IMG/VR virus record: IMGVR_UViG_3300042350_004191
Location: 124,001-188,000 of that record
DNA: 64,000 nucleotides
DNA from: a virus
Reading direction: 5' to 3' (one strand)
The position numbers and the translations under genes are program-made. Shown here in pieces: positions 9,382 to 24,125 of the stretch (its first letter is position 1; every line of letters begins with the position of its first letter). The notes below the pieces were generated by a model. It had not been told where the DNA came from and searched no databases. It saw nothing but the letters and a program-made list of their open reading frames with translations.

Positions 9382-9777
9382 ATGGATAATTTGTTCGAAG
9401 AGTATGAAAAAGAAATATTTTCTGATACAAAAATTGACGAATTAAATCTTTTAGAAAAACAATTACAGTTACCAGCCATAAAACATAAATGGGTTGCAAG
9501 ATTAATTACCCACAAAAGGAAAGTAAACAATCTTGAGAAAAAAAGAAAAGAGATTAAAGAAATAGTTTTATCTAAAATGAGCGATATCCCCAAAGGAATA
9601 CCAAAAAAATTATTAGATGCTAAAATTGACACAACCGAAGAGATTCAAAAGATAGACGAAGAAATAGAAAAACATAGTATAATGATAGAATATTTGGAAA
9701 AAGTTGAACAAATATTTAAATCTATGAGTTACGATCTTAAAAATATTATAGATATTAATAAATTAGAAACTACATGA
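9382..9777 (+). CDS. uvsY: UvsY-like recombination mediator
   Basis: 131 residues, close to T4 UvsY (137). The pattern is similar: acidic start (M-D-N-L-F-E-E-Y-E-K-E-I-F), a central helix with K-W-V-A-R-L-I-T-H-K and a charged K-K-R-K-E-I stretch, and a C-terminal helix. UvsY loads the UvsX recombinase onto gp32-coated ssDNA. Linkage to uvsW (4-nt overlap) and presence of uvsX and gene 32 in the same window support the call. It is the first gene of a long rightward unit behind the palindromic promoter. Confidence 0.65.
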   Translation: MDNLFEEYEKEIFSDTKIDELNLLEKQLQLPAIKHKWVARLITHKRKVNNLEKKRKEIKEIVLSKMSDIPKGIPKKLLDAKIDTTEEIQKIDEEIEKHSIMIEYLEKVEQIFKSMSYDLKNIIDINKLETT

Positions 9778-11201
9778 TAAAAATTAAATTTAGCGGTAAA
9801 AAGAAAAACCTCCTGCAATTAGAAGGAGATCCTTCTTTTATAGCATTATTAAGAGAAAGATTTTCTGTTCAGAATCCAGCATATCGTAGCAATAATCCAT
9901 TTGTACAACCTAGATTATATTGTATAACTCCATCAGGTAAATTTGAGATAGGTCTTCTTAAAGAAATATCTAATGCAATAGCAAACGAAGGTTTTGGTGT
10001 AGAAATTGAAGACGATATTAAAAAAGTATTCAGTCCTATAAATGTTGAAACTTGTTTTAATTTAATTCCATTAAATATGGATTATAGAGATTATCAAGAA
10101 CAAGCAATTAAGCAAACTATTGCACATGGAAGGGGTGTTATTATTTTACCTACAGCAAGTGGTAAAACTTATGTTATGGCAGGATTGATTAAAAACATCA
10201 AACTTATGTTGAATAATCCAGATGCCAAAACTTTAGTATTAGTTCCTTCGATACAATTAGTGGAACAGACGTATAAAGATTTTTTAGATTACGGATTAAC
10301 TGATATAACAAAATGGTCTGGTAAAAATAAACCAGACTTTGAAAATTCTAAAATTATTATAGCTGGTACACAAATATTATTAAGCAAAACCACTGACTTA
10401 TCTATTCTATCACAAATTGACCTGTTCTTATGTGATGAGGTTCACGGAATTAGGAAAGGAAACAGTATTAATAAGATTTTTAATTTGTTAGATACACCAT
10501 ATACGTTTGGATTTACAGGCACAATGCCCCCTTCTCTCATAGATCAATGGAATATAATTGGAAAATTCGGACCCATAAATTATGAAGAAAAAACCAAAAC
10601 ATTAGAACAAAAAGATTATATTGCAACATTTAAGATCATAATTTTAAGAATAAAACACGATAGCTTACCATCACATATCGCAGTTCCTGATCGATCATTG
10701 GAGTCTTTTCAAAGAGAATTAGAATTTTTATTACAAAATAAAAAAAGAAATGAAATGATCTGTAATTTAGCTAATAAACTACAAAATAATACTATCATAA
10801 TGGTTGATAGAATTGACCATGGAGTAGTTTTGACTAATATACTGCGTAATATTACAAAAAGACCCCATTATTTCATTCAAGGATCTACAGAAATTGAAGA
10901 AAGAGAGAATATAAGAAAACTCATGAATGAAAAAAACGATGTAATTGTTGTGGCTATGTCAAAAATATTTAGTACGGGTATTAATATACCTAATTTACAT
11001 AATATAATTTTTGCTTCTGCTGGTAAAGCTAAAATTAAAATTATGCAATCTATTGGAAGAGCACTAAGACTACATCCCAATAAAAAAGTTGCAAATATCT
11101 TTGATATAAGCGATAATACAATATATAGTCGTAAACATTTAAAACAAAGATTAGACTTATATGATAAAGAAAATTATTTATATGAAATAAAAGACCTATG
11201 A
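9774..11201 (+). CDS. uvsW: UvsW-like recombination helicase
   Basis: 475 residues, a superfamily 2 helicase with the N-terminal extension typical of UvsW. The Q-like motif is D-Y-R-D-Y-Q-E-Q-A-I, Walker A is P-T-A-S-G-K-T (about residues 125-131), the DEVH box is near 221-224, motif III is G-F-T-G-T-M, and motif VI ends S-I-G-R-A-L-R. UvsW unwinds R-loops and branched DNA and helps switch T4 from origin to recombination-dependent replication. It overlaps uvsY and gene 55 by 4 nt each, so the three are translated together. Confidence 0.9.
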   Translation: MIKIKFSGKKKNLLQLEGDPSFIALLRERFSVQNPAYRSNNPFVQPRLYCITPSGKFEIGLLKEISNAIANEGFGVEIEDDIKKVFSPINVETCFNLIPLNMDYRDYQEQAIKQTIAHGRGVIILPTASGKTYVMAGLIKNIKLMLNNPDAKTLVLVPSIQLVEQTYKDFLDYGLTDITKWSGKNKPDFENSKIIIAGTQILLSKTTDLSILSQIDLFLCDEVHGIRKGNSINKIFNLLDTPYTFGFTGTMPPSLIDQWNIIGKFGPINYEEKTKTLEQKDYIATFKIIILRIKHDSLPSHIAVPDRSLESFQRELEFLLQNKKRNEMICNLANKLQNNTIIMVDRIDHGVVLTNILRNITKRPHYFIQGSTEIEERENIRKLMNEKNDVIVVAMSKIFSTGINIPNLHNIIFASAGKAKIKIMQSIGRALRLHPNKKVANIFDISDNTIYSRKHLKQRLDLYDKENYLYEIKDL

Positions 11202-11977
11202 AAAAGAAAACTAAAGACAAAACCCCTAAGAAAAAAAATATAATAAAAAAAACTATTAAAAAAAACATTTCTAAAAGCAAAGAACTCAACGAAGTTAAAA
11301 CAAAACCTATAGTAAATAAAAAACCAAAAAAAAGAAGAAGAAAATTAGAAGAAAACATAGACGAACTTGCGGAATATGAAGATCATCTTCTCACAGAAGA
11401 AGATTTTGAACAAGAATTAGAATTAAGTTTAAAAAAACGTCTTGGATATAGCGAAGAAGATGAATTAGAAGAAACAGAAGAAGTAGAAGAACCCGAAGAA
11501 GTAGAGGAAGTAGAAATTTTAGGGGTTCCTTATAAAAACAAAAGACCAAAGGTTCCAAAAGAAAAATTTTATGTTGATCCCAAACATTTTGATGATGAAA
11601 TTGTGAAATATTATGAATCTGGTGTTATATCAAATGATTTAGCTGAAATGGTTAGTAAGATTGCCAACAAATTAAGCTTTTCATCAAATTTTGCGGGTTA
11701 TACGTATAGAGAAGAAATGGTGGGAGATGGTATTGTTCGTATGTTTAAAGCACTAATGTCAAAAAAATACGACAGAGAAAAAGGAACCAACCCATTTTCT
11801 TACTTTACAAGAATCGCCTTCAATGCTTTTAGAAATAGAATTAAAAAAGAAAAACACATTCACGAAGCACAAGAAAGATATCAACAAGAATATATGATGG
11901 TATCCGAAGGATATACTAATTTACTAAAAAATAACCAAATTAGTATAACAAAAGATTTATTAGATAGATATGATTGA
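11198..11977 (+). CDS. 55: Late transcription sigma factor, gp55-like
   Basis: 259 residues. The first ~110 residues are a low-complexity extension, first Lys-rich then Glu-rich, absent from T4 gp55 (185 residues). The core (about 120-245) matches gp55: N-F-A-G-Y-T-Y-R-E-E-M-V-G-D-G near residue 167, then N-P-F-S-Y-F-T-R-I-A-F-N-A-F and R-I-K-K-E. gp55 directs RNA polymerase to TATAAATA late promoters with gp33 and the sliding clamp. Such boxes occur before many virion genes here. The end K-D-L-L-D-R-Y-D could serve as a clamp-binding tail, but that is inference. Confidence 0.85.
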   Translation: MKKKTKDKTPKKKNIIKKTIKKNISKSKELNEVKTKPIVNKKPKKRRRKLEENIDELAEYEDHLLTEEDFEQELELSLKKRLGYSEEDELEETEEVEEPEEVEEVEILGVPYKNKRPKVPKEKFYVDPKHFDDEIVKYYESGVISNDLAEMVSKIANKLSFSSNFAGYTYREEMVGDGIVRMFKALMSKKYDREKGTNPFSYFTRIAFNAFRNRIKKEKHIHEAQERYQQEYMMVSEGYTNLLKNNQISITKDLLDRYD

Positions 11978-13001
11978 TTGTGTTAATGCTAAAATAGGAA
12001 GTTTTTCTGATATTCATATAGGGTTATATCAAGATAACCCTATATGGCACGATATATCTTTAAAATTCGCAGAAAATGTATCAACCTTTTATAAAAAAGA
12101 AGGTATTAAAGACATAATCATACCTGGTGATATATTTCATAACAGATCAGAGATATCAGTAAGAACAATACATACTGCAAAACGTTTTTTTGACTATTTT
12201 AAAGATTTTAATATCATAATATCTGCTGGTAATCATGATTCTTTCTTAAAAGAAAAAGCAGAAATAAATTCTATATGTATATTTGATGGTTGGTCAAATA
12301 TAACTATTGTTGATAAACAACCCCATGTTATAGAAACATCTAACGGCACAACAATTTCGCTGGTACCATGGGGTACACCAGTAGAAAGCATCCCCCATAC
12401 CGATATATGTTTTGGTCATTTTGAAATTAATACGTTTTACATGAACACTTACAGAGCTTGTGAAAAGGGTGAAGACTCTACTAATTTATTAAGTAAAAGT
12501 CCGTTTATTATATCAGGCCATTTTCACAAAAAAGACCATAGAACGTATAAAAAAGGTCAAATTTTATACTTGGGAAGTCCATATCAACACAATTTTGGCG
12601 ATTATGGTGATGACAGAGGTTATTATATAATAAATTTGGATACTAAAACGTTTAATTATTATTCAAATACTTTTTCGCCTAAATTTATAAAAATTAACAA
12701 AGAAAATTTAGAAGAAAAAACAATTAAAAATGTTTTAGAAAATAATTTTGTACATTTATCTTTAGATTCGTCTGTTAAAAATGATGAAATTAATAAAATA
12801 ATAACTCAATTAAAAACATATAAACCGAATGATATAAAAATTGAATATCAAAACACAGAAGAAGAGAAAAACACAGAAAAAACTTACGATTCTATAGATA
12901 TATTAGAAAATATTTATGAATATGTTCAAACTTTAGATATTGAAAGCAAAAATGAAGTTGTTAATTATCTAACAGATGTGTATAATAGTATAAACAAATG
13001 A
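11970..13001 (+). CDS. 47: gp47-like (Mre11/SbcD) nuclease subunit
   Basis: 343 residues with calcineurin-type metallophosphatase motifs in order: F-S-D-I-H-I-G (about 12-18), P-G-D-I-F-H-N-R (about 51-57), S-A-G-N-H-D (about 86-90), F-G-H-F (about 149-152) and S-G-H-F-H (about 182-186). gp47 is the nuclease partner of the gp46 ATPase in end resection for recombination-dependent replication. The gp46 gene lies 8 kb downstream at 20986, separated by the glycan island, whereas the two are close together in T4. The start overlaps gene 55 by 8 nt. Confidence 0.9.
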   Translation: MIDCVNAKIGSFSDIHIGLYQDNPIWHDISLKFAENVSTFYKKEGIKDIIIPGDIFHNRSEISVRTIHTAKRFFDYFKDFNIIISAGNHDSFLKEKAEINSICIFDGWSNITIVDKQPHVIETSNGTTISLVPWGTPVESIPHTDICFGHFEINTFYMNTYRACEKGEDSTNLLSKSPFIISGHFHKKDHRTYKKGQILYLGSPYQHNFGDYGDDRGYYIINLDTKTFNYYSNTFSPKFIKINKENLEEKTIKNVLENNFVHLSLDSSVKNDEINKIITQLKTYKPNDIKIEYQNTEEEKNTEKTYDSIDILENIYEYVQTLDIESKNEVVNYLTDVYNSINK

Positions 13002-13744
13002 AAACCGGAATTGGAATATTAGATCTATATGATGATGAAAGTCTTAAAGACCTTTTATCAAAGGTACCACAAGATGCTTATATATCAGTTATAAGCAATC
13101 GCAAAAATCCTTATAAACCAGAAGTAGACAATTATATAAGCGTAGGAGATTCGTCCTTGGCTAATATGAAAAATTTACTTTTATACGATTTTAGGATTAA
13201 AAATCTTGATTATTATTATTTAATACACACTGATCAAGTATTAAATGATGCCGATGATTTTAATAAAATTAAAAAGATTTCCGAAACTTTTGGAACATGG
13301 TTTTTAACTGGTAATATAGGAGATAAAACACTCGATATTGAAGATGATAATGGTTCAGTTTTAAAATTATCACAAAAATTAAACTCAAAATTTCTTTTTA
13401 CATTTAAAGGAATATTAAAAAATGTTGGATTCTTTGATGAAAGATTTATTAATACACAAAACTTAGATGTCTTGGATTATATTATTCGTTTAAAACAAAA
13501 AAACTTATATGTAGCAGATGGTTATTATCCAACAATTTCATTACCAATTGTTGAAAACAGAAAAACAATGAGCAATGCTTATATACAAGATTTTCCTAGT
13601 GAAGAAATGTCAGTAAGACATTCTTATGGGTTGTTTGTACATTTACACAAATACATTCCTAATCATAGTGATCCTCAACCTAAAAAAGAAGAAGAGGTTT
13701 TAAACTCTGTTGAAAATTTACAAAAAAATTATTCTAAAAAATAA
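12998..13744 (+). CDS. Glycosyltransferase-like protein (GT-A type), first gene of glycan island
   Basis: 248 residues, overlapping gene 47 by 4 nt. The central L-D-Y-Y-Y-L-I-H-T-D-Q-V resembles the end of the nucleotide-sugar site of GT-A enzymes, but an exact DxD is not seen. Further on, F-K-G-I-L-K-N-V-G-F-F-D-E-R-F matches the G-x-F-D-E-x-F/Y segment that follows the active site in GT2 enzymes. The C-terminus is Lys/Glu-rich. Probably a divergent GT2-like transferase; donor and acceptor unknown. Confidence 0.5.
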   Translation: MKTGIGILDLYDDESLKDLLSKVPQDAYISVISNRKNPYKPEVDNYISVGDSSLANMKNLLLYDFRIKNLDYYYLIHTDQVLNDADDFNKIKKISETFGTWFLTGNIGDKTLDIEDDNGSVLKLSQKLNSKFLFTFKGILKNVGFFDERFINTQNLDVLDYIIRLKQKNLYVADGYYPTISLPIVENRKTMSNAYIQDFPSEEMSVRHSYGLFVHLHKYIPNHSDPQPKKEEEVLNSVENLQKNYSKK

Positions 13745-13749
13745 ATTAT

Positions 13750-15186
13750 ATGATTTTCGTAGGTATAGTTACATGTAATCGACCAGATTATTTTAATAAA
13801 TGTTATGAGTCTGTTAAAAATGCTAATAACGTAGACGTTATTGCTGTATGTAATGACGGAAAAGACGAAGTTCTTTTAGACTCAAATTCTTTATACATAA
13901 AACATAAAGAAAATAAAGGTGTAGGTATTAGCAAAAATGATTTATTGAGGTTAGCATTGGAAAATCCTAAAATAGAACACATCTTTTTATTAGAAGATGA
14001 TATGATTGTCAAAGATCCTGATGTTTTTAATGTATATGTTAAAGCTGCTAAAAAATCAGGAATATATCATTTAAATTTTGGACCAGGATCTCCTTTTAAT
14101 AGAAAACAAAACTTTAATTTTGATTTACATAATAGACATTTGTGTAAAAATGATTCAGAATTAAATCCTAAGTTAAAAGTAGAGTATAGCGAAGACGTAG
14201 AAGTTTGGTTTTATGAGCATACGGTTGCTATGCTGTCTTATTTTCACAGGTCTGTATTAGAGGATGTAGGATTACACGATGAAAGGTTTTATAATGCATG
14301 GGAACATGTAGACTTAACATACAGAATAATAAAAGCAGGATATCATCCTCCTTTTTGGTGGTTTGCTGATGTTGCTAATAGCGATAAATTGATCGATGTT
14401 GCTCCTGAAGCTATAGAAAAAAGTTCAATTGCTAAAGATACCGAACAGTGGCAAAAAAATGTATATGGTGGTAGAGAAGTATATAAAGAAAAACATAATC
14501 ACTACCCAAACAACCCACCGTATCTTTCCAAAGAAGACGTTATACGTATAATTAAGCGTCTAAAAAGAAAGAGTGATCTTTTAGAAAAAGAAAAATCTAA
14601 TAATTTAACAGATAAGTTGCCAGATATATCTCAGATACCAGAAGAATTTGAAGAATTAATAAATGTTTATAAAACATTAAAACCTAAAAATGTATTAGAA
14701 ATTGGATCTTTGTTAGGTTGGTCTTTAAAAAGGTTTATTAAAAATGCAGAAGATAGTGCTAATATTATTTCTATCGATTATCCTGTAAGAGACTTTGTAG
14801 GACCCAATGATCAACGTGTTGACCAACAAGAGTATGGTCATATGATTCTTTGGAAAAAATGGGCTAAAGAAAAAAACATAAATTTGACAGTTTTACCTTA
14901 CTCGTCTTTTCAACAAAGCACACTTGAACAAGTAAAAAGTGTAACAAAAGAGTTAGATTTTCTTTTTATAGACGGAGATCATAGATATGAGGCAATAAAA
15001 AATGATTTTTATATGTATTATCCTTTAGTAAGGAAAGGAGGTATTATTGCTCTCCATGATATTGCAGAAAACGAAGAGGGTGGTGGTCATAAATTTTGGA
15101 ATGAGATAAAAAATAAATTTAAACACAAAGAATTTTTATTATCCGATAAAAAAGATAAAGGTATTGGAGTAGTATATGTCGAATAA
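13750..15186 (+). CDS. Fusion of GT2-like glycosyltransferase and SAM methyltransferase
   Basis: 478 residues in two domains. Residues 1 to about 270 are GT-A/GT2-like: V-G-I-V-T-C-N-R-P-D-Y at the start, L-L-E-D-D-M-I-V as the acidic metal motif (about residues 80-87), and H-D-E-R-F-Y-N-A-W-E-H-V-D further on. Residues about 305-478 are a class I methyltransferase of the Methyltransf_24 type: N-V-L-E-I-G-S-L-L-G motif I, F-L-F-I-D-G-D-H-R-Y-E and K-G-G-I-I-A-L-H-D-I. One protein may add a sugar and methylate it or the acceptor. A related stand-alone methyltransferase is at 20356. Confidence 0.75.
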   Translation: MIFVGIVTCNRPDYFNKCYESVKNANNVDVIAVCNDGKDEVLLDSNSLYIKHKENKGVGISKNDLLRLALENPKIEHIFLLEDDMIVKDPDVFNVYVKAAKKSGIYHLNFGPGSPFNRKQNFNFDLHNRHLCKNDSELNPKLKVEYSEDVEVWFYEHTVAMLSYFHRSVLEDVGLHDERFYNAWEHVDLTYRIIKAGYHPPFWWFADVANSDKLIDVAPEAIEKSSIAKDTEQWQKNVYGGREVYKEKHNHYPNNPPYLSKEDVIRIIKRLKRKSDLLEKEKSNNLTDKLPDISQIPEEFEELINVYKTLKPKNVLEIGSLLGWSLKRFIKNAEDSANIISIDYPVRDFVGPNDQRVDQQEYGHMILWKKWAKEKNINLTVLPYSSFQQSTLEQVKSVTKELDFLFIDGDHRYEAIKNDFYMYYPLVRKGGIIALHDIAENEEGGGHKFWNEIKNKFKHKEFLLSDKKDKGIGVVYVE

Positions 15187-16003
15187 TATAACATTTGTTA
15201 CACATTTAAGGTACGATAATCCAGACAGAATAAGCAATCTTCAAACAATGATTGATTATTACAGTCAAAATTTTCCAGAATCAAAATTTATTTTCGTGGA
15301 AGACGATTATGAACATAATAAAAATTTTGATAAAGTTAAATGGAAAAAAGGATCAACTTCTTATTATTTTTTAAAAAATACAGGGACATATCATAGAACC
15401 AAAGCATTAAATTATGGGTTTAATGAGGCAAAAACACCTATAGTTGTTTCCATGGATACTGATTGTATTGTTTCTAATAAATCTATATTAGAATGCGAAC
15501 AAGAATTGTTGAATGGTGCTACTGCCGCATGGCCTTATAATGGTTATTTTATCGATGTAGATTATAATCTAAAAAACTTCTTCACTCAAAATTCTTTAGA
15601 TTATAATATATTATTATCCAATCTTGATGGATGTTTAGAGTTGCCTATATGTGCATCTTACAAAAATTATTCTGTAAGGTGTACAAGTACAGTTCATTTA
15701 GGTGTAGGTGGAATTGTTATGTTCAACAAAGAACTATTTTTGAAAATAGGAGGTTACAATGAAAATTTTGTAGGTTGGGGCTGTGAAGATAATGAAGTAG
15801 AATATAGGTTAAAAACCTTGAATCAATTATATTATAGAGATAAAGATAAATCGTCTATATGTTTTCATTTATATCATGCACAAGCACAAAGGGCAGAGAA
15901 TCCATTCTATGATAGAAATGGTAAATTGTTAAACGAAATACAAGGAATGGATGAAGCTAATCTTTTGAAACATATATTAACTTGGAAAAATGATAACGTT
16001 TAG
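15176..16003 (+). CDS. Galactosyltransferase-like GT2 enzyme (GT7 C-terminal-type domain)
   Basis: 275 residues. V-S-M-D-T-D-C-I-V gives the DxD metal motif (about residue 97). G-G-Y-N-E-N-F-V-G-W-G-C-E-D-N-E is the hallmark of the GT7-type galactosyltransferase C-terminal domain found in beta-1,4-galactosyltransferases, polypeptide GalNAc transferases and chondroitin polymerases. H-L-Y-H follows, as in those enzymes. It probably transfers Gal or GalNAc from UDP-sugar. GGAG lies before the start; the gene overlaps both neighbours (11 and 14 nt). It could make the beta-Gal acceptor for the next two enzymes, but that is inferred. Confidence 0.7.
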   Translation: MSNNITFVTHLRYDNPDRISNLQTMIDYYSQNFPESKFIFVEDDYEHNKNFDKVKWKKGSTSYYFLKNTGTYHRTKALNYGFNEAKTPIVVSMDTDCIVSNKSILECEQELLNGATAAWPYNGYFIDVDYNLKNFFTQNSLDYNILLSNLDGCLELPICASYKNYSVRCTSTVHLGVGGIVMFNKELFLKIGGYNENFVGWGCEDNEVEYRLKTLNQLYYRDKDKSSICFHLYHAQAQRAENPFYDRNGKLLNEIQGMDEANLLKHILTWKNDNV

Positions 16004-16805
16004 AAATTTAGGAAAACATGGAGAATTCGGAAACCAGCTATTTCAAATAGCTGCTGTTATAGGTACTGCCATCAAAAACAATACAGTTTTTAATTTTCCG
16101 AAATGGCAAGGTTTAATATCTGGAACAGAGTATTCAACATATTTTAAAAATCCAATTCCAGAATCAGTAAACATTAATGACCATTTTGATGTTTATATGG
16201 AGCCATCTTTTTCGTATAACGAGATACCATATCAGATGAATCAAAAATTAGACTTGTTTGGTTATTTTCAAAGCGAAAAGTACTTCTTACACTGTAAAAA
16301 TGAAATTATAAATTTTTTCGAACCTTCAGAATTAATTTTTAAAAAAATAAAAAACTTAGATTATAAAAACTCTGTGAGTTTACAATTAAGGTTTTATGAT
16401 AATAAAAGACAATATTCAAATCACCTTGTTATGAACGATCCTTCGTATGGTGATTTATATTATACAGTTGAAGAGAATATTCCATATTTACAACAAGCTA
16501 TAAATTTTTTTGGGAAAGATAAAAATTATTTTGTAACTACAAATAACTTTGAAAAGGCTAAACAAATGTTTGGTGCTTATAGTAATTTTTATTTTTTGGA
16601 AAAATATTCATATTTAGAACAGTTTTTTATACAAAGTTTGTGCGAGCACAATATTATTACAAATTCGTCTTTTGGGTGGTGGGGTGCTTGGTTAAATAAA
16701 AATTTACATAAAATAGTTTTTGCGCCTTGCTTATGGTTTAAGCCAAATCATAAATCCAAAGAAGAAAGTAAAGATTTATATCCTGAAACTTGGAAAGTTT
16801 TATAA
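15990..16805 (+). CDS. GT11-like alpha-1,2-fucosyltransferase
   Basis: 271 residues, typical GT11 size. The N-terminal G-E-F-G-N-Q-L-F-Q-I-A matches the G-x-x-G-N-Q-x-F-Q donor-site motif. The C-terminal S-L-C-E-H-N-I-I-T-N-S-S-F-G-W-W-G-A-W-L matches the most conserved GT11 motif. The usual H-x-R-R-G-D motif is replaced by L-Q-L-R-F-Y-D-N-K-R, so one Arg remains but the His is lost. Enzymes of this family add fucose alpha-1,2 to galactose (H antigen). Activity or donor choice may differ because of the altered motif. Confidence 0.75.
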   Translation: MITFRNLGKHGEFGNQLFQIAAVIGTAIKNNTVFNFPKWQGLISGTEYSTYFKNPIPESVNINDHFDVYMEPSFSYNEIPYQMNQKLDLFGYFQSEKYFLHCKNEIINFFEPSELIFKKIKNLDYKNSVSLQLRFYDNKRQYSNHLVMNDPSYGDLYYTVEENIPYLQQAINFFGKDKNYFVTTNNFEKAKQMFGAYSNFYFLEKYSYLEQFFIQSLCEHNIITNSSFGWWGAWLNKNLHKIVFAPCLWFKPNHKSKEESKDLYPETWKVL

Positions 16806-17704
16806 TGAGAAGTTTAGTAACAGGTGGACAAGGATTTATTGGAAGCGTTTTAGTAAAAAAGCTACTAAACGAATGTAAAGATGATGTGATTGTTATTGAT
16901 AATAACAGTTCAAATAACAAAAATAATTTTAATGTTAAAGGAGCCAAATATTACAATGTAGATTTAAATAATTTTGACAAAATATTTCCTTTATTTAAAG
17001 ACGTTGACAGGGTATTTCATTTAGCAGCAGACGTTTCTATAGAGTTTTGTAATAAAAATCCCAGAATATCAGGTATTAATAACTCTAACATAACTCTTAA
17101 TACACTAGAATGTTGTCGATTAAATAAAGTTAAAAAATACATTTATTCGTCAACTTCTGCTGTATATGAACAAAAAAATACTAAATTGAAAGAAACCGAC
17201 AATGTTCGTCCTTTAAATTTATATTCAGCATCCAAATTATTTGGAGAAAATTTATGTAAAATATATTACGACCTTTATGGTGTAGAAACAATTTGTTTGC
17301 GCTATTTTAATGTTTTCGGTTCTTCAATGAAGAAAAGTCCATATTCTTCTGTTTTAGTTAATTTTTTAAATAATGAGTCAGAAAATAAACCATTAATTGT
17401 ACATGGTAATGGTAAACAAACAAGAGATTTTGTATTTGTTGAAGATGTAGCACAAGCAAACATCATAGCATCAACACTAAAATTGAAAAAATATGGTAAG
17501 ATTTACAATATAGGTTCTGGTAAAAGCATGTCTATAATAGACTTAGCAAAAAAAATTTCAAATAATATTACTTTTGTAAAATCACGAAGTGGTGATATAA
17601 AGAATAGTTGTTCTGATATTAAAAGATTAAAAAAAGACTTTAATTGGAAACCTGAAGTGAAAATTGAAAAATGGTTAAATAAAATAATTAAAACAAATGT
17701 ATAA
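16805..17704 (+). CDS. NAD-dependent NDP-sugar epimerase/dehydratase (GalE-like SDR)
   Basis: 299 residues from the ATG that overlaps the preceding TAA by one base; a TTG 15 nt upstream is also open but less likely. The extended SDR fold is clear: V-T-G-G-Q-G-F-I-G (residues 5-13) binds NAD, Y-S-A-S-K is the catalytic Y-x3-K, and L-R-Y-F-N-V-F-G and R-D-F-V-F-V-E-D-V-A match UDP-glucose 4-epimerase relatives. It likely interconverts UDP-Glc/UDP-Gal or the N-acetyl forms, supplying donors for the galactosyltransferase-like and GT6 neighbours. Substrate cannot be fixed from sequence. Confidence 0.8.
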   Translation: MRSLVTGGQGFIGSVLVKKLLNECKDDVIVIDNNSSNNKNNFNVKGAKYYNVDLNNFDKIFPLFKDVDRVFHLAADVSIEFCNKNPRISGINNSNITLNTLECCRLNKVKKYIYSSTSAVYEQKNTKLKETDNVRPLNLYSASKLFGENLCKIYYDLYGVETICLRYFNVFGSSMKKSPYSSVLVNFLNNESENKPLIVHGNGKQTRDFVFVEDVAQANIIASTLKLKKYGKIYNIGSGKSMSIIDLAKKISNNITFVKSRSGDIKNSCSDIKRLKKDFNWKPEVKIEKWLNKIIKTNV

Positions 17705-18380
17705 TATAGGTTTATTAATAATAGCGACAAATAAATACATAGATTTTTTAAATCCTTTAATAAAAAGTACAGATAATTATTTTTTAAAAAATCAAAATGT
17801 GAAATATTTTATCTTTACGGATAAAGATATTTCTTTTTTAAAAAGTGAAAGAGAAATTGTAAAAATTCAAACTGAACACAAAGACTGGCCTTGGATGACT
17901 TTAGGTAGATATAAAATTTTTTGTGATAGTAAAAATTTATTATCTAAAATGGATTATCTTTATTATTGTGATGTAGATATGAAATTTGTAGACGAGGTTG
18001 GTGACGAAATTTTAGAACAAATAGTAGCTACACAACATCCAGCTTTACGAGAAACAAGAGGAACTCCAGAAACTAACACAAGTTCTTTAGCGTGTGTTTA
18101 TCCTCACGAAAATATGGAATATTTTGCTGGTGGATTTAATGGCGGTTCTGCTGAACAATTTTTAAAAATGTCTAGTATTTTGTCTAAAAATATAGAAATC
18201 GATTATTTAAATGGAATTATTGCTTTGTGGCATGATGAAAGTCATTTAAATAGATATTTAATAGATAATCCTCCTACAAAAATATTAAGTCCAAGTTATT
18301 GTTACGGGGAAAACATGGAACTACCTTTCCCTAAAAAAATTCTAGCTTTAGACAAAAATCATTTTAAAATAAGATCATGA
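17697..18380 (+). CDS. GT6 (ABO blood-group-type) glycosyltransferase
   Basis: 227 residues, covering the GT6 catalytic domain without the vertebrate stem. The match to the human A/B transferases is strong at several points: C-D-V-D-M-K-F with D-E-V-G-D-E-I-L, F-A-G-G-F-N-G-G-S, L-W-H-D-E-S-H-L-N-R-Y-L, P-T-K-I-L-S-P-S-Y and C-terminal K-N-H. The D-x-D motif is intact, so the enzyme is probably metal dependent; many bacterial GT6 proteins have N-x-N instead. GT6 enzymes add Gal or GalNAc alpha-1,3 to galactose, often after alpha-1,2-fucosylation. It sits two genes after the GT11-like gene. Confidence 0.85.
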   Translation: MYNIGLLIIATNKYIDFLNPLIKSTDNYFLKNQNVKYFIFTDKDISFLKSEREIVKIQTEHKDWPWMTLGRYKIFCDSKNLLSKMDYLYYCDVDMKFVDEVGDEILEQIVATQHPALRETRGTPETNTSSLACVYPHENMEYFAGGFNGGSAEQFLKMSSILSKNIEIDYLNGIIALWHDESHLNRYLIDNPPTKILSPSYCYGENMELPFPKKILALDKNHFKIRS

Positions 18381-19039
18381 AAAAAGGAGTTATACTATAC
18401 CATAACAACATACAAAAATTGTATGATAATAGATGGATTGATAAATGTATACATTCCATGGTAAATCAAACGGATAATGATTTTACTTTTTATGAATTAA
18501 ATTATAACGGAGATTCTAATTCAGTTGTTAAAAACAATTCACAAAAATTAAAATTTTGGTCAAAAAAAATGTCAAATTATGCAGAAGCTATGAATTTTTT
18601 ATTGGATAAATCGTTTAATGATGGGTGTGATTATGTTTTTAATACAAACTTGGACGATTATTATGCATTAAACAGAATATCATCACAATTAGATATGATG
18701 TTAGAACAAGATTTAGATATAGTGAGTAGCGATTTTTCTTACATACAAGAAAGAAAAGAAAATGGTATTTCAGAAGATGTCGTAATTTTATTTAAAAATA
18801 TTGAAAAAAATAATATTAAAGACAATTTAATGAAAAGACATAATGTTATTGCTCATCCATCCGTTTGTTATAATAAAAGATTTTGGTTAGATAATAATAA
18901 CAGATATGATATTAATAAGGTTCCGCAAGAAGATCTAGACTTATGGATTCGCTCAATAAATAATGGTTATAAGTTTGGAATACATGAAAAAGTGTTATTG
19001 TATTATAGAATACATGAAAAACAAAGCAGTCAATCATGA
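18377..19039 (+). CDS. GT2-family glycosyltransferase
   Basis: 220 residues. I-H-S-M-V-N-Q-T-D-N-D-F-T-F-Y is the GT2 opening strand-helix, N-T-N-L-D-D-Y-Y (about residue 95) provides the acidic metal motif, and P-Q-E-D-L-D-L-W-I-R is the E-D-x-x-L-W catalytic-base segment. The order and spacing are standard for GT-A family 2. Start and end overlap the neighbours by 4 nt (ATGA), so it is tightly coupled to the GT6 gene before it. Donor sugar unknown. Confidence 0.75.
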   Translation: MKKGVILYHNNIQKLYDNRWIDKCIHSMVNQTDNDFTFYELNYNGDSNSVVKNNSQKLKFWSKKMSNYAEAMNFLLDKSFNDGCDYVFNTNLDDYYALNRISSQLDMMLEQDLDIVSSDFSYIQERKENGISEDVVILFKNIEKNNIKDNLMKRHNVIAHPSVCYNKRFWLDNNNRYDINKVPQEDLDLWIRSINNGYKFGIHEKVLLYYRIHEKQSSQS

Positions 19040-19707
19040 ATATATACAATTTTATCGAAAGTAATATAAACAAAAATTCAATTTTTTTTGAAATAGGATC
19101 TCATTTTGGTTCGGATACTCAAAAATTTTCTAAAATAACAAACAAATTACATTGTTTTGAACCAGATCCTAGAAATATAAAAATTTTTAAACATTTGAAT
19201 TCAAATGTACAATTAAACGAGTTTGCAATTTCTGATAAAGACGGTGTATCACAATTTTTTCTTTCTAGTGGCAATGTGTACGAATCAATGTATGGACCTA
19301 CAGAAAATGAATTAATAAACCAAAACGATTGGTCAGCCTCTTCGTCATTAATTTCTCCTAAAAATCATTTTAAAAAAACACCATGGGTTAAATTTGATAA
19401 TACTATAGAAGTCAAAACAAAACGCCTAGATACATATTGTATAGAAAACGATATTAACAATATAGATTTTCTTTGGATGGACGTTCAAGGAGCAGAACTA
19501 AGCGTTATAAAAAGTATGGGAGCCTTCAAAGATAAAATACATTACATTTATACAGAATACAGCAATGAAGAATTGTATGAAAACCAAGGAACTAAAGAAC
19601 AAATTATAGAATTATTGGGCAATTCTTGGAAAGTTTTGTGTGATTTTGGAGGCGATATTTTATTAGAAAACCAAAATTATGATATCAATTACAATACCAG
19701 CATATGA
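19036..19707 (+). CDS. FkbM-family methyltransferase
   Basis: 223 residues. F-F-E-I-G-S-H-F-G-S-D motif I binds SAM, C-F-E-P-D-P follows motif II, and I-D-F-L-W-M-D-V-Q-G-A-E-L-S-V-I is the signature of FkbM methyltransferases. These commonly O-methylate sugars or polyketides, and in surface-glycan clusters often cap or decorate a residue. It overlaps the next glycosyltransferase by 29 nt in another frame. Confidence 0.8.
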   Translation: MNIYNFIESNINKNSIFFEIGSHFGSDTQKFSKITNKLHCFEPDPRNIKIFKHLNSNVQLNEFAISDKDGVSQFFLSSGNVYESMYGPTENELINQNDWSASSSLISPKNHFKKTPWVKFDNTIEVKTKRLDTYCIENDINNIDFLWMDVQGAELSVIKSMGAFKDKIHYIYTEYSNEELYENQGTKEQIIELLGNSWKVLCDFGGDILLENQNYDINYNTSI

Positions 19708-20350
19708 AATGTGTGGAGTTGGTAGTTCTTTTTTAGAAAAAAATTTACAATTTTTAAGAGATCAAACTTTTAAAAATTTTGAAGTAGTTATATCAGATCA
19801 TAGTATTTCCGATGATATAAAAAATGTTTGTTCTTTATTTAAAGACTTGGACATAAAATATATTAGAAATGAAAAAGATCGTGGAAGTTCTTCGGCTAAT
19901 TTAAACAATGCAATACTTAATTCAAAATATGATATTATTAAATTTTTAATGCAAGACGAATATATTTTTGAGAAAAATACTCTGTTGGATATTAAAAATG
20001 CTTTTCAAAGTGAAAATGTTAATTGGGTTGCTGTAGGTTTTTATAATGGAAATATAGAAGACAAAAGAATACCTTATTATAATGATGCAGTTATATATGG
20101 AAACAATACAATCGGAAGTCCTAGTATTGTTTCCATAAGAAAAACCAAAGATTTAGAGTTATTTAATCCTGAATTGATATGGTTAATGGATTGTGATTAT
20201 TATAAGAGAATTTACAATAAATGGGGTCATCCATTTATTGTAAAAGATTATAAAATTTTCATAAATCACCACCAAAATCAAGTTACTAATATTATAGATA
20301 ATATAAGAAAAGAAAAAGAACATGTTTTTTTAAAAACAATATATAAATAA
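19679..20350 (+). CDS. GT2-family glycosyltransferase
   Basis: 223 residues. I-S-I-T-I-P-A-Y-E at the N-terminus, F-E-V-V-I-S-D-H-S-I-S-D-D, R-G-S-S-S-A-N-L-N-N-A-I and F-L-M-Q-D-E-Y-I follow the GT2 order. The Q-D-E replaces the common D-D/D-x-D, an acceptable GT2 variant. The C-terminus is basic. It is the last glycosyltransferase of the island. A late-type promoter box overlaps its stop codon. Confidence 0.75.
   Translation: MISITIPAYEMCGVGSSFLEKNLQFLRDQTFKNFEVVISDHSISDDIKNVCSLFKDLDIKYIRNEKDRGSSSANLNNAILNSKYDIIKFLMQDEYIFEKNTLLDIKNAFQSENVNWVAVGFYNGNIEDKRIPYYNDAVIYGNNTIGSPSIVSIRKTKDLELFNPELIWLMDCDYYKRIYNKWGHPFIVKDYKIFINHHQNQVTNIIDNIRKEKEHVFLKTIYK
20342..20349 (+). promoter_or_regulatory. 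Late promoter TATAAATA before the terminal methyltransferase gene
   Basis: A perfect T4-late consensus overlaps the stop codon of the upstream glycosyltransferase and ends 6 nt before the ATG at 20356. This would let the last island gene be expressed late. Confidence 0.6.
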
Positions 20351-20355
20351 GCGAT

Positions 20356-20952
20356 ATGACAAGAACACAGATAATAAACGGATTAATTAAAAAAAATAAC
20401 TATAAAAGTTATTTAGAGATCGGTGTTAATACACCTGAACAACCTGGATATAACTGGTCCAGTGTACAAATAGATTTAAAACACGGTGTTGATCCATTTG
20501 TAGACACGACATTTAAAACTACATCTGATGATTTTTTTAAAAATTACATAAATCAAAAATATGATATTATTTTTGTAGATGGGTTACATTTGTTTGAACA
20601 AGCATATAAAGATATAATAAATTCTTTAAATAATTTAAACGAAAATGGGACTATTGTAGTTCATGACTGTAATCCAATTACTGAAATAACACAACGAAGG
20701 ATCAGGGAATCGAATGAATGGCATGGTGATGTTTGGAAAGCTATTTTAAAGTTAAGATTAGAAAATCCCGATGTTGATATTTCCACAGTAAATGCTGATG
20801 AGGGGTGTGCTATCATTAAAAAAGGTCAACAAACACTATTAGAAGTATCGGAAAATATAGCTGAAGTCTATGATTATTCTTTTTTAGAAAAAAATAGAAA
20901 TAAAATATTAAATTTGATATCTACTGATGAATTTATAAAAAAATATCTTTAA
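20356..20952 (+). CDS. SAM-dependent methyltransferase (Methyltransf_24-like)
   Basis: 198 residues. S-Y-L-E-I-G-V-N-T-P-E acts as motif I. I-I-F-V-D-G-L-H-L-F-E-Q-A and G-T-I-V-V-H-D-C-N-P match the D-G-x-H and H-D-C segments typical of Methyltransf_24 proteins, as in the C-terminal domain of the 13750-15186 fusion. It has its own late box, unlike its neighbours. Likely a glycan or small-molecule O-methyltransferase; substrate unknown. Confidence 0.7.
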   Translation: MTRTQIINGLIKKNNYKSYLEIGVNTPEQPGYNWSSVQIDLKHGVDPFVDTTFKTTSDDFFKNYINQKYDIIFVDGLHLFEQAYKDIINSLNNLNENGTIVVHDCNPITEITQRRIRESNEWHGDVWKAILKLRLENPDVDISTVNADEGCAIIKKGQQTLLEVSENIAEVYDYSFLEKNRNKILNLISTDEFIKKYL

Positions 20953-20969
20953 TTTTTTAAAAAATCTGA

Positions 20970-20975
20970 TATAAT
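20970..20975 (+). promoter_or_regulatory. Sigma70-like -10 (TATAAT) before gene 46
   Basis: TATAAT in the context CTGATATAATAA lies 10 nt before the ATG at 20986. The same TGATATAATA context recurs before the gene at 22821. No convincing -35 is present, only AT-rich sequence. Confidence 0.45.
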
Positions 20976-20985
20976 AATTTGTTTA

Positions 20986-22785
20986 ATGAAAAAAATTCAA
21001 TTTAAACACCTTTTTATACAAAATTTTTTATCTGTAGGTGAAGAAAAATTGCATATTAATTTTGATAGTGGTGTTAATTTCATAACAGGTATAAACAAGG
21101 ATAAAAACAGCAAAAATGGGTGCGGTAAAACTACTATTTTAGATGCTTTATATTGGTGTATATTTGGAAATACTATAAGAGACATTAAAAAAGATAAAAT
21201 TATTCATAATCACTCAGATGTTAGATGTAAAGTTGTATTAGAATTTGATCTTATTAATAATAATACCGAATCTTATAAAATAGAAAGAACTATTAATCCT
21301 AGTAAAGTCCATTTATACAAAAAACAAGAGGATACAACATATTCTACTATACAAAAAACAGATGAAGCTATTAAAAATTTATTAGGAGCTAATGAGGAAC
21401 TGTTTAGAAATTCTGTAATAATGTCATTGGATAATACCTTACCTTTCATGGCACAAAAAAAGGTAGAAAAAAGAAAATTTATTGAAGGAATTCTTCAGAT
21501 TAATATTTTTAGTGAAATGTTATCTAAAGTTAGACAGGATTATAACGAATCTAAAAAAACTCATGAAATAAATACAAATACATTTATTGAAAAACAAAAA
21601 ATGTTAAAATTTTTAGAAGATCAAAAAGAAAAAAACGAACAGAATAAAAAAGAAAAAATAAAATCCATCAATAATAAAATTAAAGAAAACATAGAAAAAA
21701 TAAAAAACAATAAAACGGAAAATTTTGATGAAAAATTAAAAAAATTTAAAGATTCTTTAACTAAAACTGAAAATATTGCAAGTAAAATAGATGAAAAAGT
21801 TGAAAACTCAAGAAATTCCATTTTAGAAGAAACAAAGAAAGAGTCTAAAATTCAAGCGGAGATTGAAAGTTTAGAAAAACAAATCAAATCTTTGCAAAAT
21901 AAAACAGGAACATGTCCCACTTGTAAAAGAAAATTAATTGAAGAAGATGATAATTCTATAAATTCACATATCGAGAAGATAAAGATCGATATTAAAGAAA
22001 AAGAACAACAACACAACTCGATTCTTTCAGTTAAAAACAAAATTAATCTAGAAAAAAATACTTTTATATCAAAAAAAGATGAATTAGTAAAAATTATTAA
22101 AGAAATTAATTTAAAAATTACAGCTTTACAGACTTTATCAAAAGAATCACAAACATTAAAAGACAGAAATGAAGAATTGTTGGTTGAAATAGAAAATATT
22201 AAAAATCAAAAAGACGAAATTAGCGAAAAATATGAAGAAATTAAAAAAGAAATATTAAACTTAGAGAAAAATATAGAAGAACAAATTAAAAATTTAACAA
22301 TTTTAGAAAATTGTAAGTCTATTGTTTCTGAAGAGGGTGTTAAAACTTATATAGTCAAAAAACTTCTGGTTTTATTTAATAATAAATTAAATTTATATCT
22401 TAAAAAGTTAGAAGCACCATGTAATTGTATTTTTGATGAGTACTTTGATGAAATTATAACTAATGAATCAGGGAAAGAGTGTTCGTACTTTAACTTTAGT
22501 GGTGGAGAAAGGAAAAGAATAGACTTAGCCATACTCTTCACATTTCAAGACATTTTAAAATCACAAACAGGAATACATTATTCACTCAGTATGTACGATG
22601 AACTATTTGATTCTGCATTAGATGATGCTGGTTCTGCTAAAGTGTTGGAAATTTTAAAAGAAAATACAGAAAAACATCAAGAATCTGTTTATATTATATC
22701 TCATAGTTCTTCCATCAATAAAAATGATGTTAATAAAGTTATTGAATTAGAAAAAATTAACGGCCAAACCAAGATAGTTAATTGA
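20986..22785 (+). CDS. 46: gp46-like (Rad50/SbcC) SMC-type ATPase
   Basis: 599 residues, close to T4 gp46 (560). N-terminal Walker A N-G-C-G-K-T-T is near residue 43. A long coiled coil (about 170-310 and 320-440) surrounds a zinc hook C-P-T-C at about 310-313. The C-terminal lobe has the ABC signature F-S-G-G-E-R-K-R (about 504) and Walker B S-M-Y-D-E-L-F-D (about 535). With gp47 it resects DNA ends to start recombination-dependent replication. It stands apart from its partner gene 47 because of the intervening glycan island. Confidence 0.9.
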   Translation: MKKIQFKHLFIQNFLSVGEEKLHINFDSGVNFITGINKDKNSKNGCGKTTILDALYWCIFGNTIRDIKKDKIIHNHSDVRCKVVLEFDLINNNTESYKIERTINPSKVHLYKKQEDTTYSTIQKTDEAIKNLLGANEELFRNSVIMSLDNTLPFMAQKKVEKRKFIEGILQINIFSEMLSKVRQDYNESKKTHEINTNTFIEKQKMLKFLEDQKEKNEQNKKEKIKSINNKIKENIEKIKNNKTENFDEKLKKFKDSLTKTENIASKIDEKVENSRNSILEETKKESKIQAEIESLEKQIKSLQNKTGTCPTCKRKLIEEDDNSINSHIEKIKIDIKEKEQQHNSILSVKNKINLEKNTFISKKDELVKIIKEINLKITALQTLSKESQTLKDRNEELLVEIENIKNQKDEISEKYEEIKKEILNLEKNIEEQIKNLTILENCKSIVSEEGVKTYIVKKLLVLFNNKLNLYLKKLEAPCNCIFDEYFDEIITNESGKECSYFNFSGGERKRIDLAILFTFQDILKSQTGIHYSLSMYDELFDSALDDAGSAKVLEILKENTEKHQESVYIISHSSSINKNDVNKVIELEKINGQTKIVN

Positions 22786-22809
22786 TTTTTAGTATTTTAG
22801 TGATATAAT
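22782..22809 (+). promoter_or_regulatory. Sigma70-like promoter TTGATT-16-TATAAT
   Basis: TTGATT (22782-22787) starts within the last codons of gene 46 and is followed after 16 bp by TATAAT (22804-22809). The ATG at 22821 is 11 nt further, so the leader would be about 5 nt. Confidence 0.65.
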
Positions 22810-22820
22810 ATTATACAAAC

Positions 22821-24125
22821 ATGGCTTTAAAAATTAAACAAAACACCGAACAAAACGACAGAAAAACCGTTTATGAATTTTCATGTGTTAGAAGAGCTAT
22901 CCCATTCCCACCACTAGGAACAACTACTAATTTACTGAATTTTAATTATATTGCCTTAAATGCAATAAAAATACCGCCACCACTACCAGTAGAAATGCCT
23001 GAAACCTCATTACCGAGAGTTTTAAATTATTATGCAGACTATGGTGGTTGTGGTTTTTGGCGAATGATATGGCCTGAATTTCTTTTAAATTTCTATCAGA
23101 AGATGGTTTGTACTGGAATGACACAAATGGTCTTAGATACCCGTTTTTATTCCACTATAAGGGCTATAAGGTTCCAAAGACAAGCTACAGATCATCAAAT
23201 GATGTTTATTAAAGAGCTTAATAAGGTTAAGAAAGACCTTAACCTAAGATTATTGTATGAAGTAGATGATGTAGTCTTCAAAGAAGATATTCCAGAATAT
23301 AATCGTTGTAGAGATGCATTTAATGATGATAAAATTGTCAAAAATATTTTAGAAATCATAGAAATGATGGATGAAATGACAGTAACTTGTCAATTCATGA
23401 AAGATTATTATATCGAAAAAACTGGAAATAAAAAAATTACAGTTATTCCAAATTATGCCCCCAAATTTTGGCTGGATAGATTTTATAATCCTGAAAAACT
23501 AGAAGAGAATTTTGAAAAAAACAAAAAACGCCCAAGAATATTATATTCTGGTTCTGGAACTCATATAGATGTTCTTAATAGAACGGGTATGAAAGATGAT
23601 TTTAGTCATGTAATTGACCAAATTATAAAAGCTAGAAAGAAATTTAAGTTTGTTTGGAAGGGTTGTTATCCATTAGCACTAAGACCCTTCATTGATAGCG
23701 GTGAAATGGAATATGTTGATTGGTCGCCTTTACCTGATTACCCTAAAGGTTTGATGGATACAAATTGCAATGCAACTTTTGCACCTTTAATTGATAATAT
23801 TTTCAATAAATCAAAAAGTAACATTAAAATGGTTGAATCTGGTGCATTAGGTATGCCCGGTGCATATCAAAATTTATGCACTTATGAAATGGCCGAACAC
23901 AGATTTGATAAAGGTACAGATTTAATTGAAAAACTTGAATACATTACCTCTGATGTCGATAGATATATGAAAGAATCACAAAAAGCACGAAAATTCGCAG
24001 AAGGTCTTTGGTTAGAAGATCATATAAACGAATATGAGGGTCTATATTTGACTGCATGGGGTTCAAAAGAACGTAATGAGAAATATCCGAGCTTGATTTC
24101 TCTCAATAAAGATCAGATAATATAG
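22821..24125 (+). CDS. GT-B type (GT4-like) glycosyltransferase next to DNA polymerase
   Basis: 434 residues. The N-terminal half has Y-Y-A-D-Y-G-G-C-G-F-W-R (about 71-82), then L-L-Y-E-V-D-D-V-V-F (about 151), a pattern seen in phage GT4-like proteins. The C-terminal half has I-L-Y-S-G-S-G-T-H (about 245) and N-K-S-K-S-N-I-K-M-V-E-S-G-A-L-G-M-P, the nucleotide-sugar site with its acidic residue. Unlike the surface-glycan transferases it lies between genes 46 and 43 under its own sigma70-like promoter, so it would be expressed with replication genes. DNA-base or protein glycosylation is possible; neither is shown. Confidence 0.7.
   Translation: MALKIKQNTEQNDRKTVYEFSCVRRAIPFPPLGTTTNLLNFNYIALNAIKIPPPLPVEMPETSLPRVLNYYADYGGCGFWRMIWPEFLLNFYQKMVCTGMTQMVLDTRFYSTIRAIRFQRQATDHQMMFIKELNKVKKDLNLRLLYEVDDVVFKEDIPEYNRCRDAFNDDKIVKNILEIIEMMDEMTVTCQFMKDYYIEKTGNKKITVIPNYAPKFWLDRFYNPEKLEENFEKNKKRPRILYSGSGTHIDVLNRTGMKDDFSHVIDQIIKARKKFKFVWKGCYPLALRPFIDSGEMEYVDWSPLPDYPKGLMDTNCNATFAPLIDNIFNKSKSNIKMVESGALGMPGAYQNLCTYEMAEHRFDKGTDLIEKLEYITSDVDRYMKESQKARKFAEGLWLEDHINEYEGLYLTAWGSKERNEKYPSLISLNKDQII

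What the first reader, a model, noticed from the sequence alone, without database searches (positions are those of the whole stretch)
15176..18380. Phage-encoded set of enzymes that could build a blood-group A/B-like glycan
Four adjacent, overlapping genes encode a GT7-domain galactosyltransferase-like enzyme, a GT11-like alpha-1,2-fucosyltransferase, a GalE-like NDP-sugar epimerase and a GT6 ABO-type alpha-1,3-Gal/GalNAc transferase. In the order beta-Gal, Fuc alpha-1,2, Gal/GalNAc alpha-1,3 these activities would yield an H then A/B-type structure. The combination in one phage operon is striking. It could remodel host surface glycans (superinfection exclusion, changed adsorption) or decorate virions. 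The motifs are seen; the linkage pathway and purpose are inferred.
Basis: partly seen in the sequence, partly recalled or inferred. Interest (0 to 1): 0.9.

Follow-up and report, generated by a model that had tools for sequence, protein, structure and literature searches.

The report
Phage sugar-coat island with GalNAc-type cap
A T4-like virus of bacteria carries a ten-gene cassette for building a surface sugar chain, including a close relative of the human ABO blood-group enzyme; such cassettes are already known in other phages, but here the gene that should add fucose has lost the residues that recognise its usual substrate, so a true blood-group A or B sugar is doubtful.

Summary
15176-18380 encodes a GT7C/GT2-type GT-A enzyme, a GT11-family protein, a GalE-like epimerase and a metal-type (DVD) GT6, in overlapping genes. 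They are the core of a ten-gene island, 12998-20952, between gp47 and gp46 of a T4-like virus (210.6 kb IMG/VR record). The slot is an exchangeable cassette: two other contigs keep these four genes in order, and sister phages fill it differently. GT6+GT11 phage islands are not new (P-SSM2, S-8S56, S-CAM9). New here: a GT11 lies within about 10 kb of 51/66 dereplicated viral GT6 genes versus 12/65 control epimerase loci, which supports the general H-then-A/B idea. In this phage, however, the fucose step fails a residue test: its GT11 and three orthologues form a clade under purifying selection in which HxRRGDY became QLRFYD, SDD became TNN and a conserved Asp became Gln; no GDP-fucose synthesis genes were found in the record. 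The GT6 (AGG triplet) and the epimerase (Ser at the C5 pocket) both point to UDP-GalNAc. Best reading: a host-surface-glycan remodelling island with an alpha-1,3-GalNAc cap; the sugar added by the GT11 is unknown and may not be fucose. Function and linkages are inferred.

The parts
11970..13001 (+). gp47-like (SbcD-like) nuclease subunit, left border of the slot
   Evidence: phrog_100 E 1e-66; same border in L259, L019, L260-L264, L272, L273
12998..13744 (+). gene A, GT2-like protein of the slot (weak phrog_2456 match)
   Evidence: conserved as first gene of the slot
13750..15186 (+). gene B, GT2-type glycosyltransferase fused to Methyltransf_24
   Evidence: split into two ORFs in L259, L260-L264
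15176..16003 (+). GT7C/GT2-type GT-A glycosyltransferase (DxD D94/D96, GWGCED)
   Evidence: AF2 pLDDT 91; Foldseek best chondroitin polymerase K4CP, also B4GALT1
15990..16805 (+). GT11-family protein with altered donor motifs (QLRFYD, TTNN)
   Evidence: AF2 pLDDT 92; Foldseek FUT8/AtFUT1/NodZ/POFUT1; divergent clade SH-aLRT 100
16805..17704 (+). GalE-like SDR epimerase, YxxxK kept, Ser at E. coli GalE Tyr299 (listed start TTG 16790; likely start ATG 16805)
17697..18380 (+). GT6 (ABO-type) alpha-1,3-GalNAc/Gal transferase, DVD metal motif, AGG donor triplet, WHDESHLN
18377..19039 (+). GT2-like glycosyltransferase
   Evidence: below cut-off; EpsE-like match; conserved in L259, L019
19036..19707 (+). 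FkbM-family methyltransferase
19679..20350 (+). GT2 glycosyltransferase
20356..20952 (+). Methyltransf_24 methyltransferase
20986..22785 (+). gp46-like (SbcC-like) ATPase subunit, right border of the slot
   Evidence: phrog_77 E 1.2e-91; same border in L259, L019, L260-L264

Best explanation
12998-20952 is an exchangeable polysaccharide-modification cassette in the gp47-gp46 slot of a T4-like virus. During infection its cytoplasmic glycosyltransferases and methyltransferases most likely extend or cap the host's own surface glycan, altering the receptor presented to competing phages. Within it the epimerase and GT6 act as a pair: the epimerase supplies UDP-GalNAc and the GT6 adds alpha-1,3-GalNAc to a beta-Gal-type acceptor (an A-like cap). 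The GT7C-type enzyme and the GT11-like enzyme build the acceptor before it. The GT11-like enzyme keeps the fold and the phosphate-binding Arg but has changed the residues that recognise GDP-fucose, so it probably adds a sugar other than fucose. Shown: genes, families, residues, conserved order, clade, purifying selection. Inferred: donors, linkages, order of steps, the target and the benefit.
For: Ten co-oriented, mostly overlapping GT/MT genes. Fixed slot, with order GT7-GT11-EPI-GT6 kept in L259 and L019 and a different filling in L260-L264. GT6 has all catalytic residues, DVD and AGG; AGG gives A-type activity in human AT. Epimerase Tyr299 is Ser, the large C5 pocket of UDP-GlcNAc/GalNAc epimerases (PMC6668579). 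GT6-GT11 association in 51/66 viral GT6 loci against 12/65 controls. GT11 donor motifs changed in a clade of four, with dN/dS 0.15 and 0.10. No GMD/Fcl in the record. No initiating transferase PF02397, so it would act on host-made acceptors. No thymidylate-synthase-fold enzyme that would hint at modified DNA bases. Phage O-antigen modification is the prevailing reading for P-SSM2 and pelagimyophages (PMC7824862, PMC7029224).
Against: No biochemistry and no host known. The record may be incomplete, so GDP-fucose genes could lie elsewhere or in the host. GT11 proteins with an altered second Arg of motif I (e.g. HVRLGD) occur in other phages, so some motif drift may be tolerated. Enzymes of this kind could also glycosylate virion proteins. 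In one relative (L259) the GT6 lacks the catalytic block, so the cap may be dispensable there.
Confidence: 0.5

Rival explanations
1. One reading: beta-Gal, then Fuc alpha-1,2, then Gal/GalNAc alpha-1,3, giving a true H then A/B-type structure, with GDP-fucose taken from the host.
For: Families and order fit; GT6 and GT11 co-occur widely in viral and bacterial loci; E. coli O86 makes B antigen with such a set (PMC4202792); the GT11 keeps the fold, the first Arg (R134), D137 and S226.
Against: The GT11 lost the His, the second Arg, SDD and the conserved Asp/Glu at 211. FUT8 His363 and Asp453 bind the guanosine (PMC7033129); mapping position 211 to Asp453 is inferred. No GMD/Fcl in the record. 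L019 keeps the altered GT11 and adds a canonical GT11 and a GMD, as if the two GT11s were not redundant.
Confidence: 0.2
2. The island glycosylates the phage's own virion proteins (for example the large tail fibre at 129-5384).
For: No initiating lipid transferase of the PF02397 kind in the record; the phage has a very large tail fibre protein.
Against: GT6/GT11/GT7C/FkbM sets are typical of surface polysaccharide loci; relatives carry NDP-sugar pathways seen in O-antigen loci.
Confidence: 0.2
3. The genes are cargo of little function ('stuffer DNA') kept by chance or turned over by recombination.
For: PMC3037559 raised this for cyanophage LPS clusters; the L259 GT6 has an in-frame loss of the catalytic block.
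Against: Order and reading frames kept across contigs at 55-73% identity; dN/dS 0.10-0.30 for the genes that could be tested.
Confidence: 0.07

Closest known systems
Prochlorococcus phage P-SSM2 LPS-type gene cluster (PSSM2_257-271)
   Same: T4-like phage; GT11 (PSSM2_265), FkbM-like protein (PSSM2_267), GT6 (PSSM2_268, 47% identical) and an epimerase (PSSM2_270) close to ours (phmmer 205 bits)
   Different: P-SSM2 also encodes GMD and a GDP-fucose-synthase-like epimerase; its GT11 has canonical HIRRTD and SDD; its GT6 and GT11 are not adjacent; it lies near hli03, not between gp47 and gp46
Synechococcus phages S-8S56 and S-CAM9, epimerase-GT11-GT6 block
   Same: epimerase, GT11 and GT6 directly adjacent
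   Different: GT6 only about 31% identical; canonical GT11 in S-8S56; order epimerase-GT11-GT6, no GT7C gene in between
Escherichia coli O86 blood-group-B O-antigen cluster (alpha1,2-FucT and WbnI GT6)
   Same: GT11 and GT6 working in sequence on one glycan (PMC4202792)
   Different: bacterial; fucosyltransferase activity demonstrated; bacterial GT6 enzymes mostly NxN, ours DxD
Human ABO transferase and BoGT6a (GT6)
   Same: same family; WHDESHLN, H233, K346; DxD as in ABO
   Different: no stem or membrane anchor; T at 176, A at 235, AGG at 266-268, G at 326
Huge phages LR745206 and LR756502
   Same: closest GT6 in the phage record collection (63.6% and 60.9%)
   Different: other neighbours (sugar-nucleotide and glycosyltransferase genes of other kinds); not the four-gene order

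Membership tests
GT6 (ABO-type alpha-1,3-Gal/GalNAc transferase) | Match to PF03414 over the curated cut-off | tested here: met
   144.2 bits vs 25; phrog_3317 190 bits
GT6 (ABO-type alpha-1,3-Gal/GalNAc transferase) | Catalytic/acceptor residues H233, W300, H301, D302, E303, K346 and a DxD (or NxN) motif | tested here: met
   all present; DVD
GT6 (ABO-type alpha-1,3-Gal/GalNAc transferase) | Transfers Gal/GalNAc alpha-1,3 to (Fuc alpha-1,2)Gal | not testable with these tools
   needs an enzyme assay; AGG triplet suggests GalNAc (PMC6351642)
GT11 (alpha-1,2-fucosyltransferase) | Match to PF01531 over the cut-off and a fucosyltransferase GT-B fold | tested here: met
   36.5 vs 23.9 bits; Foldseek FUT8/AtFUT1/NodZ/POFUT1, prob 1.00, TMq about 0.5
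GT11 (alpha-1,2-fucosyltransferase) | Motif I HxRRxD (GDP-fucose binding) | tested here: not met
   QLRFYD in window and 3 orthologues; H in 167/178 and second R in 159/178 of the set
GT11 (alpha-1,2-fucosyltransferase) | Motif II SDD and conserved Asp/Glu at window position 211 | tested here: not met
   TNN at 184-186 and Q211; first Asp of SDD present in 168/178
GT11 (alpha-1,2-fucosyltransferase) | GDP-fucose supply encoded with it (usual but not obligatory) | tested here: not met
   no GMD or GDP-fucose synthase found in the 210.6 kb record; record may be incomplete and the host may supply it
GT7 (beta-1,4-galactosyltransferase) | GT7C domain with W-G-x-E-D and DxD | tested here: met
   PF02709 47.8 bits; invariant D94, D96, E204, D205
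GT7 (beta-1,4-galactosyltransferase) | Closest to beta4GalT among solved folds | tested here: inconclusive
   chondroitin polymerase ranks first, B4GALT1 ninth, TMq about 0.5 each
GalE UDP-hexose 4-epimerase | SDR with S/T-Y-K catalytic triad | tested here: met
   T, Y, K aligned to E. coli GalE S124, Y149, K153
GalE UDP-hexose 4-epimerase | NCBIfam TIGR01179 equivalog cut-off | tested here: not met
   150.3 bits vs 262.3
Phage LPS/O-antigen-type modification island (P-SSM2 kind) | Several GT families, epimerase and methyltransferases in one run of genes in a variable region of a T4-like genome | tested here: met
Phage LPS/O-antigen-type modification island (P-SSM2 kind) | Changes the host's surface polysaccharide during infection | not testable with these tools
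   needs infected host cells; host unknown

The most novel reading that the evidence does not exclude
The altered GT11 clade is a new GT11 subfamily that uses a donor other than GDP-fucose, so that the phage makes an ABO-like cap (alpha-1,3-GalNAc) on a disaccharide in which fucose is replaced by another sugar: a blood-group-A analogue not known from cells.
Probability: 0.3. Interest if true: 0.6.

Novelty: new variant of a known kind. Interest (0 to 1): 0.42.

Why it matters
GT6 genes with blood-group specificity have been discussed mainly in vertebrates and gut bacteria. The scan shows that DxD-type GT6 genes are common in phages and usually travel with a GT11, so phages are a large reservoir of ABO-like capping pathways. 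The altered GT11 clade is a defined, testable case of a fucosyltransferase-family member that has exchanged its donor-recognition residues while staying under purifying selection. The gp47-gp46 slot gives a clean setting for watching phages exchange surface-glycan cassettes.

Tried and rejected
Nucleotide search of 9774-23000 against 50,697 phage records gave no match, so there is no close named relative. FkbM as a control query gave only a near-identical contig; an epimerase alignment was used as the control instead. A cyanophage host was considered: no photosystem reaction-centre family (psbA/psbD) in the record, and the DNA polymerase is only about 30% identical to cyanophages and other T4-like phages, so the host is left open. 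DNA glycosylation was considered: no thymidylate-synthase-fold enzyme; this is weak evidence only. The promoter/terminator scan gave no more sites than shuffled sequence, so no operon claim rests on it. The phylogenetic link of ABO to phage GT6 is unresolved: the ABO row is a long branch with no supported placement. R to F in motif I alone was rejected as a diagnostic, because other phage GT11s have L, M or I there; the combination with H to Q, SDD to TNN and D to Q is what is peculiar. An odd GT11 in L415 (CVREYND, SNN) shows a second altered form. The co-occurrence loci are not phylogenetically independent; dereplication at 90% and 70% left the association unchanged.
Full report
What was checked. 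The four ORFs are real and overlap one another. Pfam places them, all over the curated cut-offs, in Glyco_transf_7C, Glyco_transf_11, Epimerase and Glyco_transf_6; PHROG matches for GT11, epimerase and GT6 agree. The GT6 scores 131 bits against human ABO transferase among solved structures. The epimerase is in the GalE/SDR family but scores 150 bits against a GalE equivalog cut-off of 262. Its listed TTG start at 16790 probably should be the ATG at 16805, which overlaps the preceding stop as TAATG. The window is part of a 210,586-base IMG/VR virus record (window = 124001-188000) with a T4-like DNA polymerase, UvsX-like recombinase, DnaB-type helicase, terminase and tail sheath.

The real unit. 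The four genes are the middle of a ten-gene run, 12998-20952, made of glycosyltransferases, methyltransferases and the epimerase. It is bounded by gp47-like (SbcD-like, 11970-13001) and gp46-like (SbcC-like, 20986-22785) recombination genes. Other viral contigs show the same borders. L259 (IMGVR_UViG_3300008262_004551) keeps the whole set in order. L019 (IMGVR_UViG_3300010885_035415) keeps A-B-GT7-GT11-EPI, then GT6 after an inserted GT10-like gene, and adds a canonical GT11, GMD, and DegT-type and hexapeptide genes. L260-L264 keep A, B and an epimerase but have no recognisable GT11 or GT6. L273 keeps GT7-GT11 with no GT6 in the 3.3 kb before its contig ends. So the slot is an exchangeable cassette, and GT7-GT11 and EPI-GT6 look like two sub-modules (the latter point is inference from few contigs).

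GT6. Against human ABO and 170 phage and bacterial relatives, the window protein keeps H233, T245, W300, H301, D302, E303 and K346, and has DVD at 211-213 and AGG at 266-268. DxD predominates in viral GT6 (90 of 93 have D at 211), while 49 of 78 bacterial ones have N. AGG in human A transferase gives strong A activity and no B activity (PMC6351642), so UDP-GalNAc is the likely donor. The epimerase position aligned to E. coli GalE Tyr299 is Ser; small residues there mark epimerases that accept UDP-GlcNAc/GalNAc (PMC6668579). The two genes therefore agree on GalNAc. This is inference from residues. GT6 in two cyanophages was already noted in 2014 (PMC3961637).

GT6-GT11 link. 257 viral stretches encode GT6 relatives. 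Among the best 80 loci, 63 hold a GT11 within the roughly 10 kb fetched on each side; after dereplication at 90% identity 51/66, at 70% 39/49. Of 65 viral epimerase loci without GT6, 12 hold a GT11 (Fisher p 9e-12 at 90% dereplication; with loci of at least 15 kb 37/47 versus 8/27, p 5e-5). Bacterial GT6 loci show it too (48/78). This supports the general H-then-A/B logic for the family, though loci are not independent. Sequenced phages already show the pair: P-SSM2 has GMD, a GDP-fucose-synthase-like gene, GT11, GT6 and epimerase in one cluster, and S-8S56 has epimerase-GT11-GT6 adjacent.

GT11 in this phage. The fold is a fucosyltransferase GT-B fold (AF2 pLDDT 92; Foldseek FUT8, AtFUT1, NodZ, POFUT1). 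But in the window, L259, L019 and L273, motif I HxRRGDY is QLRFYD with an inserted loop, motif II SDD is TNN, and the conserved Asp/Glu upstream of motif III is Gln. No other member of the 178-sequence set has this combination. With the motif I and II columns removed, the four still form a clade (SH-aLRT 100, stem 0.99 changes per column). dN/dS is 0.15 (L259) and 0.10 (L019), with dS above 1 and so near saturation. In FUT8, His363 and Asp453 bind the guanosine and Arg365 the pyrophosphate (PMC7033129). The phage clade keeps the Arg but replaces the His; the match of window Q211 to Asp453 is my inference. No GMD or GDP-fucose synthase was found in the record. The sugar it adds is therefore open, and fucose is not the safe assumption.

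GT7C. AF2 pLDDT 91; best structural neighbours are chondroitin polymerase K4CP, LARGE1 and B4GALT1 with TMq about 0.5-0.6. DxD and GWGxED are present. Whether the donor is UDP-Gal, UDP-GalNAc or another sugar cannot be told.

How it most likely works. The record has no initiating sugar-lipid transferase of the PF02397 kind, so the enzymes probably act on host glycan intermediates or on proteins. By analogy with P-SSM2 and pelagimyophage islands (PMC7824862, PMC7029224), remodelling of the host's O-chain against competing phages is the best-supported use. I found no demonstration of it for these marine phages, and others have called such genes possible stuffer DNA (PMC3037559).

Verdict. A real, conserved phage surface-glycan island, ordinary in kind, whose ABO-like GT6 is genuine. 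The new points are the strong GT6-GT11 association across viral contigs and the GT11 clade with an exchanged donor signature, which weakens the literal blood-group A/B reading for this phage.

Noticed in passing
L259 9410-10015: GT6 of the closest relative has an in-frame loss of 26 residues that removes WHDESHLN, the catalytic block; either a dead enzyme or an assembly fault.
   Followed up: partly
window 13750-15186; L259 5424-6879; L260-L264: Gene B is one GT2-Methyltransf_24 fusion in the window and L019 but two ORFs in L259 and L260-L264.
   Followed up: partly
L177-L195: Nearest cellular relatives of the phage GT6 (about 45-54% identity) are mostly in Dependentiae/Babeliales, Chlamydiae and other uncultured bacteria.
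   Followed up: partly
L415 9387-10193; L378 10001-10780: Two further viral GT11s with altered motifs I and II (CVREYND/SNN; HLRTYSR/SDN), possibly intermediates or independent cases.
   Followed up: partly
G000:C1:104567-104842 (outside the window): Another GT2 domain inside a 624-aa frame of the same virus, far from the island.
   Followed up: no
L001 11995-12675; L002 11239-12831: Two 635-642 kb phage genomes carry GT6 61-64% identical to the window's; in L001 it lies in a run of sugar-nucleotide and glycosyltransferase genes.
   Followed up: partly
window 53349-56045: Tail-sheath-like protein of 898 aa in which the best match covers only residues 683-892, suggesting a large extra N-terminal part.
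   Followed up: no
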